From contig JAETRQ010000004.1 in NCBI GenBank assembly GCA_021770095.1, positions 218,998-282,997 on the forward strand: 64,000 bases of DNA, written 5' to 3'. Shown piece by piece: positions 44,899 to 60,689 of this stretch; position 1 is the stretch's first letter; each line of letters begins with the position of its first letter. The position numbers were made by a program, and so were the translations under genes. The notes beneath the pieces were generated by a model, which was not told the DNA's origin, did not search any database, and worked only from the letters and a program-made list of their open reading frames with translations. This stretch comes from Eubacteriaceae bacterium. Lineage in GTDB: Bacteria > Bacillota > Clostridia > Oscillospirales > Acutalibacteraceae.

Positions 44899-44930
44899 AA
44901 AACGACCATACAATCCGTATGGTCGTTTTT
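44899..44930 (-). terminator. Terminator of the riboswitch-controlled operon
   Basis: AAAACGACCATAC / GTATGGTCGTTTT stem with a 4- to 5-base loop, T-run on the minus strand, 34 bases after the stop of the SPATG protein gene. Confidence 0.9.
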
Positions 44931-44964
44931 GATATAAGGTTTCAGTTTTTATTTATAATCAAAT

Positions 44965-46134
44965 TTACTGTTCCTTTTTCTTTGCACATACTACTGTAAA
45001 TCCGGCACATGCAATTGCTGCAGAAAGAGCAATCACGCCTGCTGAAGCACCTGTGGCAGGTGATTTCTTAGATGTGTTGGTTTTTGTAGCAGTTGATGAT
45101 TTTGTTGTGTCTTTTTTGTCAGTTACTGTTGGTTTGGCAGCGGGAACAGTGGGTTCCTCAGAATCATCAGGGTCGGGATCAGAACCATCTTCCTGTGCTA
45201 TTGCAATGATGTAGAAATCCGAAAGAGCAGGGAGTGCATCCTGTGTAGCAAGTTTGTTGTCTTCACCGTCATATGTGAAGATACCTGCTGATGAACCTTC
45301 AAATGTGCAAAGGTCAGCATAGATACCGTTTAAGAAATCATAATATGTATCTATATCGGCAATATCTTCTCCGGGCCATGAAATGTTTGCGGAAAGTGCA
45401 AGTGCTGTTGAATTTGCATTTGGCTCAGTGCCGTATTCAGGGCTGTAACAATATCCGCCCTCAACTTTGTATGTTGTGTTAATTACTTTAACAGCATCAT
45501 TAAGTACGTCTGTATACTTGTCTGTGTAGTAAGATGCAAATGCAATTGCTTCAACAAAATTTGCGGTATTATCGCAAGAGTATCCGTAATAATTTGCACC
45601 TTTGCCCATTGTATAGTAATTGCTGATGTAAGTATCGCAAACTTTTTCCATAAACGTTGCTGCTGTTGTTTCATCTTCACATAACAGTACGCCGAGCGTT
45701 ATGTAACGATAGTAACTCGGTATTGCACAAGGTTCGGTTGGGTCAAGTGCTAAAAATGCTTTTTCAATATTAAATCCGTAAAAGTCGGCAGGGTCTTCTC
45801 CAAGGCCGACAAGTGCTGCGATAACTGCACCATAGGTTGCAAGGCTTTCGCCATAGGCAGAAACGATTTTGCCGTTGTTGCGTTCGAGGTTGGCTTTGAC
45901 ATCTGCAATGAAAGCGTCACTGTATTTTTCAACATCACTGCCGCTGAAGGCCAGAGGTGCAAATGTGATTGCGGAGTCAACGCCGTATGTTTCAACTCCT
46001 TCGGTAAGATAAGCAGTTGCGCCTTCAACCTGCTGCCATACCTTTTCTGAACTTGGTTTGTTTGCTGCAAATGCAGTAAGACTTGTTGAAAGAATTACAC
46101 ACAATGCAAGTAAAACGGATAATAATTTTTTCAT
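44965..46134 (-). CDS. SPATG-anchored helical-repeat surface protein (transcobalamin alpha-domain-like)
   Basis: A 389-aa exported protein: signal peptide 1-23 (LLSVLLALCVILSTSLTAFA), a helical domain of about 290 residues, a Pro/Thr/Lys-rich stalk (about 315-355), then SPATG, a hydrophobic segment and KKKEQ, the layout of a sortase substrate. The helical domain has repeated segments such as ATYGAVIAALVGLGEDP and GTEPNANSTALALSAN, typical of the alpha/alpha-toroid (prenyltransferase-like) fold that forms the alpha domain of transcobalamin. It follows a DUF4430 gene by 27 bases, both under a cobalamin riboswitch. A B12-binding or presenting role is inferred. Confidence 0.8.
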   Translation of the reverse strand: MKKLLSVLLALCVILSTSLTAFAANKPSSEKVWQQVEGATAYLTEGVETYGVDSAITFAPLAFSGSDVEKYSDAFIADVKANLERNNGKIVSAYGESLATYGAVIAALVGLGEDPADFYGFNIEKAFLALDPTEPCAIPSYYRYITLGVLLCEDETTAATFMEKVCDTYISNYYTMGKGANYYGYSCDNTANFVEAIAFASYYTDKYTDVLNDAVKVINTTYKVEGGYCYSPEYGTEPNANSTALALSANISWPGEDIADIDTYYDFLNGIYADLCTFEGSSAGIFTYDGEDNKLATQDALPALSDFYIIAIAQEDGSDPDPDDSEEPTVPAAKPTVTDKKDTTKSSTATKTNTSKKSPATGASAGVIALSAAIACAGFTVVCAKKKEQ

Positions 46135-46161
46135 ATTTTTCCTCCTATATAATGCTTTATG

Positions 46162-46875
46162 CTAACAAGTGTAACTGAACACTATGCTGTCGCCGTTTGA
46201 TACGATATATTTTCCACAGCTTTTTGATATATATTTTCCGTTGACGGTATATGTCCATCCGCTCTGGTTGCCGCAGTCTTTTTCGTCAATATTGTTGAAA
46301 CCTGCAATATAAATACCGTAAGAACTACTGGTCGCATTAACACTGACTCCGTTGTTGCTGCATGCAAGTTTGACTGCATCGTATGCAGAAGAACCGTTTT
46401 GTACACGGACTGAACAATTGCTGAAGAATACACCGTTTTGCGGAACAAAATCTTCGTGACCTGCCTTGAGATTGTCCATATTACTGAGGATTTTTTTGCA
46501 TTCAACAGTTACTGTGCAGTTAACGGTTGATGATGTGGTGGTTGTTTGTTTTTTTGTTGCCGCTTTCGTTGTGCTTTTTGTTGTGTTGTTTGTGTTTTTA
46601 TTAGTTTTTTCGGCAGTTGTGTTTTTGTTGGTATCGGAGTTTTTATTTTTGTTGTTACTGTTGTCTGTTTTGTTTGTTGTGGTTACAGTCGAAGAAGTTG
46701 ATGAAACTTTTGATGTTTTGTCAGCGACAGATGCATCGTTATCATTTTCAGCAATGATTGTATGAACTGCGGAAGTGACTGTTTCACTCTGACTTTTTGA
46801 TGTTTCATCTGAACCGCACCCGAACAGGCAAAAACATAAGAATAAACAGAATAAAATTTTACTGATTTTTTTCAA
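46162..46875 (-). CDS. DUF4430 (transcobalamin C-terminal-like) lipoprotein
   Basis: A 237-aa lipoprotein starting at TTG 46875, eight bases after AGGGGG; the frame also opens from a GTG at 46932 inside the riboswitch region. MKKISKILF, a Cys/Phe/Leu-rich core and LFGC give lipidation at Cys20. A Ser/Thr/Asn/Lys stalk (about 25-120) leads to a C-terminal DUF4430 domain (about 125-237) with GSSAYDAVKLACSNNGV, CGNQSGWTYTVNGKYISKSC and VSNGDSIVFSY. DUF4430 matches the beta domain of transcobalamin and intrinsic factor. Its SD lies in a hairpin downstream of the B12 aptamer. Confidence 0.85.
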   Translation of the reverse strand: MKKISKILFCLFLCFCLFGCGSDETSKSQSETVTSAVHTIIAENDNDASVADKTSKVSSTSSTVTTTNKTDNSNNKNKNSDTNKNTTAEKTNKNTNNTTKSTTKAATKKQTTTTSSTVNCTVTVECKKILSNMDNLKAGHEDFVPQNGVFFSNCSVRVQNGSSAYDAVKLACSNNGVSVNATSSSYGIYIAGFNNIDEKDCGNQSGWTYTVNGKYISKSCGKYIVSNGDSIVFSYTC

Positions 46876-46883
46876 TAATAAAA

Positions 46884-46909
46884 CCCCCTGACTATAAAAA
46901 GGCAGGGGG
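46884..46909 (-). promoter_or_regulatory. SD-sequestering hairpin (riboswitch expression platform)
   Basis: On the minus strand CCCCCTG (46909-46903) pairs perfectly with CAGGGGG (46890-46884), which contains the ribosome-binding site of the DUF4430 gene. When it forms, translation should be blocked, so control is probably at translation. Confidence 0.75.
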
Positions 46910-46959
46910 ATATAAGGACTTTGTAAATCCACTTCTTTCCCTTTGCCCGAAAGATGAAT

Positions 46960-47100
46960 TTGGCACGGCAGGTCTCCCGACTTGTGATATAGGATAATTC
47001 CATATAAATACGCCTTCTCAGTTTCCCAATGGCTGTTGTATTTATTTCATCAGATACGGTAATGGCGGTTGCTTAGGATTCTAACCTAATTCCCTTTTAA
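46960..47100 (-). ncRNA. Cobalamin (B12) riboswitch aptamer
   Basis: On the minus strand the order of conserved blocks fits the cobalamin aptamer: GGGAATTAGGTTAGAATCC, then GCAACCGCCATTACCGTA, CAGCCATTGGG, GAGAAGGCG and the B12 box AAGTCGGGAGACCTGCC (46984-46968). Binding of adenosyl- or other cobalamins normally shuts off downstream genes. It precedes the DUF4430 gene. Small changes from the classical GCCCCCGCTACTG core are present. Confidence 0.92.
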
Positions 47101-47147
47101 TTTAAACATTGTTTAAAACCGTTAACTTTATTAAATTTAATAATATA

Positions 47148-47176
47148 AGAATACATTAATATATTCAATCTGTCAA
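47148..47176 (-). promoter_or_regulatory. Promoter of the riboswitch operon
   Basis: Minus strand: -35 TTGACA (47176-47171), 17-base spacer, -10 TATTCT (47153-47148). The -35 overlaps the hpt stop codon. A palindrome TTTAAACATTGTTTAAA lies at 47101-47117 between the start site and the aptamer. The 297 bases from 46876 to 47172 therefore hold promoter, leader, aptamer and SD hairpin. Confidence 0.75.
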
Positions 47177-57924: not shown

Positions 57925-59202
57925 TTAGTCAATTTGAGTATAGAAAGTATCCAGAACGGTTTCCATTAACTTATCTTCGTCAGGATAAAATTCTGCATAA
58001 ACCACATCAGCATAATCAATTCTTGTGCTTGGTTTCATCTCACCCTGCAGTGTTTCGGTTTCAAAATCCGTAATTCCCTTTGAAATAAGGAGTGAAGCAA
58101 GATAAGTTGCGTCAGATACTGTAAGGTTTGTTGCACTGTATTCGCTTGCTGTTGAATACAGTTTGTTAACAATGCTGAAGTCATTCATAACAGACGGAAC
58201 AAGCTGTGCTGCAAATGCTTTGATGTACTGCACCTGTCTTTCTGTTCTGTTGAGTGATGCATTGATATTGTCAAGATTTCTTGTTCTTACATATGTTTCT
58301 GCCAAATCACCGATAAGATGAACTTCATCACCTTTTTTTATATTAACATTCTGGAAGTCGTAAATTGATGTTACGGTTACACCGCCGATGGTATCGTTTA
58401 TCGGTGCAATACCATTGAGGTCGAGTGCAAAATATTTGTTGATTGGAACATTCATCAGAATACGGCTGATAGAAGTGGTAACATTTGTTGCAGAAGTATC
58501 CGTGCCGTTACCGTAAGCATAACTCAGGCACAACTGCATCTCCTCATTTCTGAGGAAGATGTTGTTTTCGGAATAAAGGTCAACTTCAACCATTGTGTCA
58601 CGCGGAACAGCAATTGCTTTGGCTCTGCCTGTTTTTGTATCAACAGTGAGAACGATATTTGTGTCAGATTGACCTGCTGTGCCGACAACGCCGTTATCAA
58701 GACCCAAATCACGCTTGTCTACACCAAGAAATGCAATGGCAACAACATCATCGTTATATATATATTCGTGACCGTTGTATGAGATTTTTTCTTCGTAATT
58801 TTCCTGTGTTGTTACAGTTGGAGCAGTCATACTCGATTTTCCTTTGAATTCAAGGAAAAGGAATGTACCGACTACAGCAAATATAAGCAGTAAAAGGATA
58901 ATCAGTATTGCAATTGCAATCTTACCTGCAGTTGTAATTTTCTTTTTACGCTTCTTACTTTTCTTCTTTTTTGAACTGCTGCTGTGACTATGACTACTGC
59001 TGTGATGATGATGGTGATGGTGGTGATGCTGTGATTTCTCGGTTTCTTCAATATTGAAGTGCGGTGTTATTTTCTGAATTTCAACATCTTCAACCTTTTG
59101 CAGGGGCTCGTTTGGTGTAATCTCCCGACCATCACTATTAAGAGCGAATTGCAAACTTTCATCATCAAAATTATCTAAATTAGGATCAATTGGTTTTTTC
59201 AT
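57925..59202 (-). CDS. LCP-family ligase with N-terminal His tract
   Basis: A 425-aa LytR-CpsA-Psr protein, expected to join glycopolymers to peptidoglycan. The cytoplasmic N-terminus (1-92) has a run of nine His (59-67), a Ser/His stretch and a Lys/Arg cluster; a membrane helix follows (about 93-117). The outer LCP domain has VVAIAFLGVDKR, TVDTKTGRAKAIAVPRDTMV and AETYVRTRNLDNINASLNR. Its start lies 17 bases inside the sortase gene, so translation is coupled. The His tract is natural and unexplained. Confidence 0.9.
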   Translation of the reverse strand: MKKPIDPNLDNFDDESLQFALNSDGREITPNEPLQKVEDVEIQKITPHFNIEETEKSQHHHHHHHHHSSSHSHSSSSKKKKSKKRKKKITTAGKIAIAILIILLLLIFAVVGTFLFLEFKGKSSMTAPTVTTQENYEEKISYNGHEYIYNDDVVAIAFLGVDKRDLGLDNGVVGTAGQSDTNIVLTVDTKTGRAKAIAVPRDTMVEVDLYSENNIFLRNEEMQLCLSYAYGNGTDTSATNVTTSISRILMNVPINKYFALDLNGIAPINDTIGGVTVTSIYDFQNVNIKKGDEVHLIGDLAETYVRTRNLDNINASLNRTERQVQYIKAFAAQLVPSVMNDFSIVNKLYSTASEYSATNLTVSDATYLASLLISKGITDFETETLQGEMKPSTRIDYADVVYAEFYPDEDKLMETVLDTFYTQID

Positions 59203-59995
59203 CTTTTGTCAATACTCCGCATATTAATAATCTGTTGCTTTTTTGATTTGTTATACAGGTTGATAGTATTACTATTTTACTGTCTTTGGTAATCTCGGTA
59301 TCCAATTGCGTTCTTATATTCTTTGATACTGAGTCAGGATTTTGTATCATTTTCTGAAAGTCTTCTAAAACAGATATGTCTGAAAATCTGAAGGAATTCA
59401 GTATATGCCTGTCATCATATTTGAATGCAGAAACAATTTGATAAGTTAATTTCCTGTTTGTTGTATATATCGTAAAATACGGGTGATTATTAAAAAAGTC
59501 TTCATCCTCGAATCTGTGAAGGGTGGTGAACATTGTGTCCCCATAACCGTTATGACCGTAAATTACCGTAACAGGATCTTTGAAATTTTTGCTGTTTGCG
59601 AGTTCAGTATAAACGGCACCGCTTGCTGACCAGCTTTTGTCTTCTGCTTTATGCTTCAGATAAAACTCGTCATCCGTTGCACTTTGAACAATAGGGTGGT
59701 CAACATTGGTATCATCCACTTTTATCCATGCATATATTTCATCATTCTTTTCCTGAAGGGATTTGAAATCGATAGGGTTGTCAACCGGATTTTCTGACGG
59801 GGTGATCTGCGTGGTCGGTGCAGTTGTTGTTTTGGGTGGAGCGGTGATATGGTTGTTATATAATTGTATAGCAAAATACACGCCGCAAAAAACAATCACA
59901 AAAACAATTATAAAAATAAGAAAGAGTTTTATCTTTTTCTTATTATCGTTTTCTTTTTCATTGTTATTATTAGGTTCAAGTTGTTTATTGTCCAA
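59186..59995 (-). CDS. srtB: Class B sortase
   Basis: A membrane transpeptidase that cuts a sorting signal and links the protein to the cell wall. From TTG 59995 (AGGTGA six bases upstream) it has 269 aa; the frame reaches 60052 but that part lies in the terminator of the gene before. A membrane helix at about 25-45 is followed by a Thr/Pro linker and the catalytic domain: YGHN with the active His, LSTC with the active Cys, and a later Arg in NRLLICGVL. AWIKVDDTNVDHPIVQ is typical of class B. Two SPATG proteins in the window are likely substrates. Confidence 0.9.
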   Translation of the reverse strand: MDNKQLEPNNNNEKENDNKKKIKLFLIFIIVFVIVFCGVYFAIQLYNNHITAPPKTTTAPTTQITPSENPVDNPIDFKSLQEKNDEIYAWIKVDDTNVDHPIVQSATDDEFYLKHKAEDKSWSASGAVYTELANSKNFKDPVTVIYGHNGYGDTMFTTLHRFEDEDFFNNHPYFTIYTTNRKLTYQIVSAFKYDDRHILNSFRFSDISVLEDFQKMIQNPDSVSKNIRTQLDTEITKDSKIVILSTCITNQKSNRLLICGVLTKDEKTN

Positions 59996-60026
59996 ATTTA
60001 TCACCTGTAAAATGTGTCCTGAGATT

Positions 60027-60064
60027 AAAAAGACCTGTTTACCAAATGGCAAACAGGCTCTTTG
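60027..60064 (-). terminator. Terminator after the SPATG protein gene
   Basis: Minus strand: GAGCCTGTTTGCC / GGTAAACAGGTC stem, with TTTTT behind. It lies between the 60080 gene and the sortase gene, so part of the transcription may read through into the sortase-LCP pair. Confidence 0.75.
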
Positions 60065-60079
60065 TTTTAATTATTAAAA

Positions 60080-60634
60080 TTATTCAGCGTCTCTCTTTTT
60101 TGTTGCTGAAAGAACTGCGATGCCTGCACCCATGATTGCAACACTGCCAGCGATTGCTGCTGTTGAGATACCTGTTGCAGGTGATTTTGAAGAATCATTC
60201 TTCTTTGTAGAAGCAGTTACTGATGTTGTACCGTTACCCATATCAACGATTGCGTTTACAATGAGATCTCCGTTTTCAAATGCTGCGATTGCATCTTCGT
60301 TGAGGAAAGTAATTGTGAATGAACCGTCTTTATTCTGAACTGCTGTGTAATCTTCACCTTTAGTGAAACCTAAAGCAGTCATATTTTCTTCCCAGCCTTT
60401 GAGTGTGCCTTCACCTGTATAAGTGAATGTTACTGCACCGGTTTTATTGCTGTCTTTAGAAAAAACAACATCTTTGAAGTTGTTAACACCGTTAACCTGT
60501 GTGATTGGTCCTTTGTTAACAGCAGTTGAAGCTGTTGGGCTCTGAACATCTGCAGCCATTGTCGGCATAACAGAAAGAGCAAAAACAGAAATTGTCATAA
60601 CAGCAGCAAGAATAACTGATAATAATTTTTTCAT
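60080..60634 (-). CDS. Small SPATG-type cell-wall surface protein
   Basis: A 184-aa exported protein starting at ATG 60634 behind GAGGTG. Signal peptide about 1-28 (LLSVILAAVMTISVFALSV), a roughly 110-residue beta-rich domain (TGAVTFTYTGEGTLKGWEEN, DGSFTITFLNEDAIAAF), a short Lys/Ser linker, then SPATG, a hydrophobic helix and KKRDAE. This is a sortase substrate layout, and the class B sortase gene is directly downstream. The outer domain matches no family I recognise. Confidence 0.8.
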   Translation of the reverse strand: MKKLLSVILAAVMTISVFALSVMPTMAADVQSPTASTAVNKGPITQVNGVNNFKDVVFSKDSNKTGAVTFTYTGEGTLKGWEENMTALGFTKGEDYTAVQNKDGSFTITFLNEDAIAAFENGDLIVNAIVDMGNGTTSVTASTKKNDSSKSPATGISTAAIAGSVAIMGAGIAVLSATKKRDAE

Positions 60635-60689
60635 AATTAACACCTCTATGCATTTTTATAAAATAACATTTGTACAATAATTTGAGTAA

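What the first reader, a model, noticed from the sequence alone, without database searches (positions are those of the whole stretch)
44899..47176. Riboswitch-controlled, split transcobalamin-like surface system
One transcript runs promoter, cobalamin aptamer, DUF4430 lipoprotein, helical-repeat SPATG protein, terminator. Mammalian transcobalamin and intrinsic factor consist of an alpha/alpha toroid (alpha domain) and a small beta domain; DUF4430 corresponds to the beta domain, and the second protein has repeats typical of the toroid. Here the halves are separate, one lipid-anchored and one apparently wall-anchored, and both are under B12 control. Cobalamin could be captured between two surface proteins and handed to a BtuFCD-type importer encoded elsewhere. 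Basis: motifs and riboswitch seen; fold and function inferred.
Basis: partly seen in the sequence, partly recalled or inferred. Interest (0 to 1): 0.8.

Follow-up and report, generated by a model that had tools for sequence, protein, structure and literature searches.

The report
B12-controlled split transcobalamin-like surface proteins
An uncultured gut-type bacterium appears to catch vitamin B12 at its surface with two separate proteins that correspond to the two halves of the animal B12 carrier transcobalamin, made only when B12 is scarce; the parts are of a known kind, the split form looks new, and the idea can be tested directly.

Summary
In detail: promoter-like site, cobalamin riboswitch (88.4 bits, cut-off 31.5), DUF4430 lipoprotein, SPATG protein and terminator, minus strand 47176-44899. 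ORF2 has no Pfam match, but its family matches prenyltransferase-type alpha/alpha toroids (hhalign 98.3%, E 1.6e-14; controls at most 0.3%). In the genus, 61 of 72 ORF2-like matches lie behind a B12 riboswitch; elsewhere toroid and DUF4430 occur fused or adjacent.

BtuFCD hand-over is not supported: no FecCD match. The genome has an ECF operon beside BtuR whose S component is closest to the chain taken as cobalamin-specific CbrT; homologous ECF genes flank DUF4430 at 13 loci of 12 relatives. CbiC, CobS and MetE gave no match; MetH is present.

Burroughs et al. 2007 already predicted bacterial transcobalamin-like scavengers with toroids and CbiO/CbiQ neighbours. Not seen in print in my searches: the split two-anchor form and its riboswitch control.

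The parts
47148..47176 (-). promoter-like site TTGACA-17-TATTCT, overlapping the end of the hpt-like gene
   Evidence: 10 of 12 positions; number of sites in the region not above chance, position fits
46950..47135 (-). cobalamin riboswitch aptamer (RF00174)
   Evidence: 88.4 bits, gathering 31.5, E 1.7e-20, model 1-189
46884..46909 (-). expression-platform hairpin CCCCCUG...CAGGGGG followed by UUUUAUUAUU; terminator-like, and it covers the AGGGGG ahead of the start codon
   Evidence: a comparable hairpin in all 15 leaders examined (window plus 14 relatives)
46162..46875 (-). DUF4430 (transcobalamin beta-type) lipoprotein, 237 aa from TTG; Ser/Thr/Asn/Lys-rich linker
   Evidence: PF14478 58.7 bits; start inferred by eye from relatives' leaders
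46168..46395 (-). DUF4430 domain
   Evidence: residues 180-255 of the 256-aa reading
44965..46134 (-). ORF2, 389 aa, secreted alpha/alpha-toroid protein
   Evidence: profile homology to prenyltransferase-type toroids; no Pfam match of its own
45049..45063 (-). SPATG sorting motif of ORF2
   Evidence: sequence; NCBIfam NPXTG model residues 358-388, below cut-off
44899..44929 (-). intrinsic terminator
59186..60052 (-). sortase, candidate enzyme for the SPATG signal
   Evidence: PF04203 37.7 bits, cut-off 26.6; link to ORF2 inferred

Best explanation
This is a B12-repressible cobalamin scavenging operon. When cobalamin is low, the riboswitch leaves its expression-platform hairpin open and both genes are made. 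The DUF4430 lipoprotein (the beta domain of transcobalamin) sits on the membrane and the alpha/alpha-toroid protein is anchored to the wall by sortase. Together they bind a corrinoid much as the two domains of transcobalamin or intrinsic factor do, and pass it to the ECF-type importer encoded elsewhere in the genome (EcfT, fused EcfA-EcfA, a CbrT-like S component, beside the adenosyltransferase BtuR). The cell needs it for its B12-dependent methionine synthase. Shown by computation: riboswitch, domain identities, linkage, presence of the importer genes and MetH, absence of FecCD, CbiC, CobS and MetE matches. Inferred: cobalamin binding, the OFF direction, assembly of the two halves around one ligand, and hand-over to the ECF importer.
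For: Riboswitch. DUF4430; transcobalamin C-terminal domain = DUF4430 (PMC4350170 passage); bacterial members predicted to scavenge B12 (PMC1796856). Toroid: hhalign 98.3%, E 1.6e-14 over 236 columns; reversed, 10 shuffled and DUF4430 controls at most 0.3%; direct hmmsearch down to 3e-13 in a small set. The comparison toroids hit squalene-hopene cyclase structures at E 1.9e-18 and are fused or adjacent to DUF4430. Genus: 61 of 72 ORF2-like matches behind RF00174, 22 of the 61 with DUF4430 in the operon and 14 with it divergent. Outside the genus: DUF4430 within 5 kb downstream of 22 of 55 riboswitches, rough chance expectation 0.08. Importer: BtuR, EcfT, EcfAA and S in one stretch; S profile's best PDB match is 6fnp_A, E 3.3e-17, next 1.9e-4, 6FNP being the ECF-CbrT entry (PMC5997447 passage); homologous ECF genes beside DUF4430 at 13 loci of 12 genomes. 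No FecCD, CbiC, CobS or MetE match; MetH present. Cleaved intrinsic factor fragments still bind cobalamin tightly (PMC6257451 passage).
Against: No structure or complex could be modelled. The toroid profile does not reach intrinsic factor or transcobalamin: none among 27 PDB hits at E up to 1, none for the ORF2 family. The DUF4430 profile finds them only at E 1.2-1.9, below four unrelated proteins. In 24 of 61 riboswitch-linked cases the DUF4430 gene is elsewhere in the genome, and several of those ORF2 homologs carry a DUF4430-like N-terminal domain of their own, which makes a separate partner less necessary. 11 of 72 ORF2-like matches have no riboswitch within 3 kb; some lie at contig ends, but G055 and G048 have the DUF4430-toroid pair without it, and the named loci with the same pair (L045, L046) show no RF00174 in 12.9 kb each. 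The ECF operon itself has no RF00174 in this genome. The S component passes the cut-off of Pfam's riboflavin S family (PF07155, 34.6 against 26.7) and hits a folate S family below cut-off, so its substrate is not settled by family models. ECF genes beside DUF4430 were seen in only one genome of the window's genus (G008); the genus was not surveyed for it.
Confidence: 0.62

Rival explanations
1. Both proteins bind corrinoid but not as one sandwich: the wall-anchored toroid stores or captures it, and the DUF4430 lipoprotein is a separate receiver docking on the ECF S component.
For: DUF4430 stands beside ECF genes with no toroid found in the stretch fetched (L088 and L105 before EcfT, L125 before EcfA), and in short form behind riboswitches without a recognised toroid (L118, L121, L122). 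In 24 of 61 cases the DUF4430 gene lies elsewhere than the toroid.
Against: Repeated fusion of toroid and DUF4430 in one chain (L081, L082, L085, L089, L124 and others; L071 by Pfam), and DUF4430-like domains fused to seven ORF2 homologs, favour joint action.
Confidence: 0.25
2. The ligand is not cobalamin itself but another corrinoid, a precursor such as cobinamide, or a host or microbial B12-carrier complex.
For: Cobinamide uptake is known for ECF-CbrT (PMC5997447 passages). A reviewer of the 2007 paper warned that the SLBB clade may bind varied ligands.
Against: With no CbiC and no CobS match a precursor could probably not be completed. Riboswitch, MetH and BtuR all point to complete corrinoids.
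Confidence: 0.1
3. B12 availability only serves as a cue: these are adhesins or wall proteins and the toroid has no ligand.
For: The other B12 riboswitch of the genome precedes a 747-aa SPATG surface protein with no DUF4430 or toroid match, and several homologs carry fn3, SLH or choline-binding repeats.
Against: Linkage of toroid and DUF4430 to a CbrT-type importer across families and of DUF4430 to B12 riboswitches.
Confidence: 0.05

Closest known systems
Bacterial transcobalamin-like SLBB proteins (Burroughs et al. 2007, PMC1796856)
   Same: Secreted or anchored DUF4430-type beta-grasp domain with an alpha/alpha toroid, in bacteria that usually lack key B12 synthesis enzymes, near CbiO/CbiQ genes; predicted B12 scavenging.
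   Different: The part read describes fusions and second SLBB paralogs. Here the toroid is a separate, sortase-anchored protein of a family without a Pfam match, and both genes lie behind a cobalamin riboswitch, a word that does not occur in the main text.
Animal transcobalamin, intrinsic factor, haptocorrin
   Same: Alpha/alpha toroid plus DUF4430-type beta domain (PMC1796856; PMC4350170).
   Different: One chain in animals, two chains here; no significant sequence match of the toroid; binding untested.
ECF-CbrT cobalamin importer of Lactobacillus delbrueckii (PMC5997447, passages)
   Same: S component of the genome's BtuR-linked ECF operon is closest to chain 6fnp_A.
   Different: ECF module encoded next to BtuR, with DUF4430 proteins alongside in relatives.
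BtuG/BtuH surface lipoproteins of Bacteroides (PMC6143338 passages; PMC8941943 listing)
   Same: Surface lipoproteins that capture B12.
   Different: Different phylum and importer; BtuG is a beta-propeller (recalled, from no call).

Membership tests
RF00174 cobalamin riboswitch | Covariance score above gathering threshold, full-length aptamer | tested here: met
   88.4 bits against 31.5, positions 1-189
RF00174 cobalamin riboswitch | Binds cobalamin and switches expression | not testable with these tools
   Platform hairpin and competing element found in leaders; no binding data
PF14478 DUF4430 / transcobalamin-like SLBB clade | Pfam score above cut-off | tested here: met
   58.7 bits against 23.8
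PF14478 DUF4430 / transcobalamin-like SLBB clade | Beta-hairpin insert after the helix that contacts B12 | not tested
   Structure prediction switched off; feature from PMC1796856
Prenyltransferase-type alpha/alpha toroid | Pfam match of ORF2 itself | tested here: not met
   0 families at E up to 10; none of the 26 A1 members has a toroid family match at E up to 1
Prenyltransferase-type alpha/alpha toroid | Profile homology to toroid families | tested here: met
   hhalign 98.3%, E 1.6e-14, controls at most 0.3%
Transcobalamin / intrinsic factor | Toroid and beta domain in one chain | tested here: not met
   Two genes here; fused only in relatives
Transcobalamin / intrinsic factor | Sequence homology of the toroid to solved TC/IF/HC | tested here: not met
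   No such chain among hits of A1 or A5
Transcobalamin / intrinsic factor | Sequence homology of the beta domain to solved TC/IF | tested here: inconclusive
   Right domains found but E 1.2-1.9, below four unrelated chains
Transcobalamin / intrinsic factor | Cobalamin bound between the domains | not testable with these tools
   No binding assay or complex model
BtuFCD importer | FecCD-type permease in the genome | tested here: not met
   0 matches, 13 of 14 controls ring
ECF-CbrT importer | EcfT and EcfA beside an S component | tested here: met
ECF-CbrT importer | S component specific for cobalamin | tested here: inconclusive
   Closest solved chain is 6fnp_A, E 3.3e-17, but Pfam's riboflavin S family is passed too; specificity needs an assay

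The most novel reading that the evidence does not exclude
A naturally split transcobalamin: the wall-anchored toroid and the membrane-anchored beta domain close around one B12 molecule across the wall-membrane gap and so act as a B12-triggered relay to an ECF-CbrT importer, in a genus most of whose B12 riboswitches (62 leading to an ORF2-like match plus 6 to a DUF4430 protein, of 76) serve such surface carriers rather than a transporter or enzymes.
Probability: 0.35. Interest if true: 0.75.

Novelty: new variant of a known kind. Interest (0 to 1): 0.52.

Why it matters
It would give Gram-positive gut-type bacteria a counterpart of the Bacteroides BtuG system, supply a concrete two-protein test case for the 2007 proposal that animal B12 carriers came from such bacteria, and name a surface partner for ECF-CbrT importers, for which none was named in the passages read here. 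It also assigns a toroid family that Pfam does not recognise.

Tried and rejected
BtuFCD as receiver: rejected, no FecCD match in the genome. The ECF at C26 as the B12 importer: set aside, its S component is a strong CbiM cobalt transporter match. The ECF module at C5: no link to B12 genes seen in the stretch read. Direct homology of the toroid to solved transcobalamins by sequence: not found. ORF1 alone finds one PDB chain, RUMGNA_00854, at E 0.34.

Rows dropped: L080 (2248-3834) and L088 (2159-3835) were first put into toroid alignment A3, showed no toroid there and were dropped before A5. L033 (interrupted frame), L015 (partial), L023 and L031 were left out of A1; L063 and L070 (short or partial) out of A2. 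For the genus count I left out the anchor-only matches (query from 279 on), two N-terminal fragments (1-55, 1-32) and two matches outside the genus. The PF14478 list was cut at its weak end and one search used stricter filters, so 'elsewhere', 'none' and 'no riboswitch' may be slightly off. Of the 8 riboswitches with neither ORF2 match nor DUF4430 downstream: G032 does lead to a toroid by profile (L096); G077 and G072 lie at contig ends; G074 leads to a frame cut by the contig end; G000-C9 and G028 lead to other surface proteins; G033 and G057 are unexplained.

A control that did not stay near zero: the N-terminal domain of the fused homologs against the ORF2 family gives 46.7% (E 2e-4), over 24 columns at the signal peptide.

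Literature: searches for DUF4430, transcobalamin with ECF, transcobalamin-like, mixed terms, riboswitch with sortase and intrinsic factor fragments. Of the papers opened, only PMC1796856 describes bacterial transcobalamin-like proteins; most listed papers were not opened (for DUF4430, 1 of 6 was). Seen: PMC1796856 abstract, passages, section 7 part 1 and section 10; PMC4350170, PMC5997447, PMC2667541, PMC6143338, PMC11477304 and PMC6257451 passages; PMC8941943 listing only.
Full report
WHAT IS THERE. The window is part of contig C53 of a 2.39 Mb, 53-contig genome estimated 100% complete. The homologs in the named collection are titled mainly as Eubacterium, Ruminococcaceae, Oscillospiraceae, Clostridiales and Clostridia MAGs. 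On the minus strand, starting at the end of an hpt-like phosphoribosyltransferase gene, run a promoter-like site (47176-47148), a full-length cobalamin riboswitch (47135-46950), a hairpin, a DUF4430 lipoprotein gene, ORF2 and a terminator (44929-44899).

THE SWITCH. I examined 15 leaders: the window and 14 of the 27 named loci with RF00174. Each has after the aptamer a stable hairpin followed by a U-rich run, mostly of the type CCYCUG...CAGRGG (L047, L050 and L055 differ). In all but L050 it stands close ahead of the start codon, with its 3' arm supplying a Shine-Dalgarno-like AGGGG or AGGAGG-type stretch in most. Between aptamer and hairpin stands a conserved GGGCA element that can pair with the 5' arm. 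In 13 of 15 leaders this duplex is better than at least 94% of 200 shuffles of the element; L047 and L050 are not (64 and 56 of 200 as good). The arms vary together in places (CCCCUG/CAGGGG, CCUCUG/CAGAGG). In L050 the hairpin is apart from the ribosome site, which suggests termination there, and the leader of the genome's other riboswitch (L007) ends in a strong terminator-like hairpin. An OFF switch acting at termination or initiation is inferred; cobalamin riboswitches are described as OFF switches (PMC11477304 passage).

THE LIPOPROTEIN. DUF4430 is certain. A paper on vertebrate binders states that transcobalamins have a DUF4430 domain at the C-terminus (PMC4350170 passage). My own profile finds intrinsic factor and transcobalamin-2 in the right domain but only at E 1.2-1.9, behind four unrelated chains, so the link rests on Pfam and the literature, not on that search.

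ORF2. It has no Pfam family and its family profile finds no relevant solved structure. An alignment of 32 family members (A2) against eight toroids from the order that are fused or adjacent to DUF4430 (A5) gives hhalign 98.3%, E 1.6e-14, over 236 columns. Reversed and ten shuffled profiles and the DUF4430 profile give at most 0.3%. Direct hmmsearch with the ORF2 family, in a small set and at E up to 1e-5, reaches five of those eight (L083, L072, L086, L071, L081; best 3.4e-13) and also L073, L084, L087 and L090. A5 matches squalene-hopene cyclase structures at 1.9e-18. Two of the eight (L083, L086), and L084, pass Pfam's cut-offs for toroid families; the rest scanned match below cut-off or not at all. 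None of the PDB hits is an animal B12 carrier. ORF2 is therefore an alpha/alpha toroid by homology; that it resembles the transcobalamin toroid in particular rests on its DUF4430 partner.

LINKAGE. In 80 genomes of the genus (window's genome included) I counted 72 ORF2-like matches in 69 genomes. 61 have RF00174 within 3 kb upstream on the same strand: 22 with DUF4430 within 1.5 kb upstream as an operon, 14 with it divergent, 24 with it elsewhere, 1 without. The other 11: several are fragments or at contig ends, one (G008) is inside a 2613-aa protein whose riboswitch is about 7 kb upstream, and G055 and G048 have the pair without a riboswitch. In the 33 named loci 27 show RF00174; of the six without, L044, L062, L063 and L070 start near a contig end and L045 and L046 truly lack it. 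Conversely, of 76 riboswitches in the genus 62 lead to an ORF2-like match within 9 kb and 6 to a 1.2-1.4 kaa protein with DUF4430 about 3.4-3.7 kb downstream; 8 to neither. Among the other 68 genomes, 22 of 55 riboswitches have DUF4430 within 5 kb downstream, with about 0.08 expected under a rough uniform model. Outside the window's protein family the same two domains occur fused (L081, L082, L085, L089, L124, and within large proteins L073, L083, L084, L090; L071 by Pfam) or split side by side (L072, L080, L083, L086, L087). Seven ORF2 homologs carry at their own N-terminus a domain that matches the DUF4430 profile (hhalign 87.1%, E 4e-6; reversed and six shuffled controls at most 1.4%). This fusion-fission pattern is the main reason to think the two proteins act together.

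WHERE THE B12 GOES. The genome has no FecCD permease match, so BtuFCD is unlikely. It has three CbiQ/EcfT matches. One lies beside CbiM, a cobalt importer. Another lies in a stretch BtuR - EcfT - fused EcfA-EcfA - S component on C50. The S component, alone and as a four-member profile, is closest to chain 6fnp_A (E 7e-4 and 3.3e-17; next best 0.016 and 1.9e-4). 6FNP is the ECF-CbrT entry (PMC5997447 passage); that chain A is CbrT I infer from its length and match. Against this, the S component also passes Pfam's riboflavin S family. Homologs of these ECF genes stand beside DUF4430 genes at 13 loci of 12 genomes (blastp detail for 10 of the loci with EcfT, EcfA or S); one of these genomes, G008, is in the window's genus. 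I did not survey ECF linkage in the whole genus. The genome has a B12-dependent MetH and a separate protein with a partial activation-domain match; MetH is its only B12-binding-domain (PF02310) match. There is no match for MetE, CbiC or CobS, each a single-family probe. It probably needs imported corrinoid.

WHAT IS KNOWN. Burroughs, Balaji, Iyer and Aravind (2007, PMC1796856; abstract, passages, section 7 part 1 and section 10 read) already described a transcobalamin-like clade in Gram-positive bacteria: secreted or anchored, fused to toroids, in bacteria that usually lack key B12 synthesis enzymes, in operons with CbiO- and CbiQ-like genes, and predicted to scavenge B12 or precursors. They proposed that animals acquired the toroid version from these bacteria. 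The kind is therefore known as a prediction. What I did not find in print, within the searches (most listed papers not opened), is the split form with two anchors, the riboswitch control, or the tie to a CbrT-like importer. A physical precedent for a split carrier exists: cleaved intrinsic factor fragments still bind cobalamin tightly together (PMC6257451 passage).

VERDICT. It is a new variant of a known kind. The step not shown, here or in the passages seen, is that these bacterial proteins bind B12. On re-checking, the corrections made (Pfam cut-offs, the riboflavin-family match, the riboswitch-free pairs, the sampled leaders) did not call for a change of the odds.

Noticed in passing
G000 contig C9, locus L007 5616-8178: The genome's only other RF00174 match precedes, with a strong terminator-like hairpin, a 747-aa SPATG surface protein with a CarboxypepD_reg match and a weak aBig_2 match but no DUF4430 or toroid match; a protein of similar make-up (803 aa, L104) follows the second riboswitch of G028. 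Its role is unexplained.
   Followed up: partly
window 59186-60643: A sortase gene (PF04203) lies beside a 187-aa secreted SPATG protein without a Pfam match; proteins of about 190-200 aa with the same kind of C-terminus recur in many genomes of the genus and may mark the sortase locus.
   Followed up: partly
L074-L079 (G048, G011, G038, G055, G021, G025): Proteins of 1.2-1.4 kaa with DUF4430 (all six) behind riboswitches; the two scanned against Pfam (L074, L079) also have GLUG and aBig_2 domains. No toroid was found in them by profile: a third layout of B12-controlled surface protein.
   Followed up: partly
L118, L121: Short DUF4430 genes behind riboswitches are followed by small membrane proteins that look like ECF S components by eye but have no Pfam match at E up to 0.01.
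   Followed up: partly
L096, L072, L083, L084: Toroid proteins use different anchors in different relatives: choline-binding repeats (L096), SLH domains (L072, L083, L084), sortase-type signals in the window's group.
   Followed up: no
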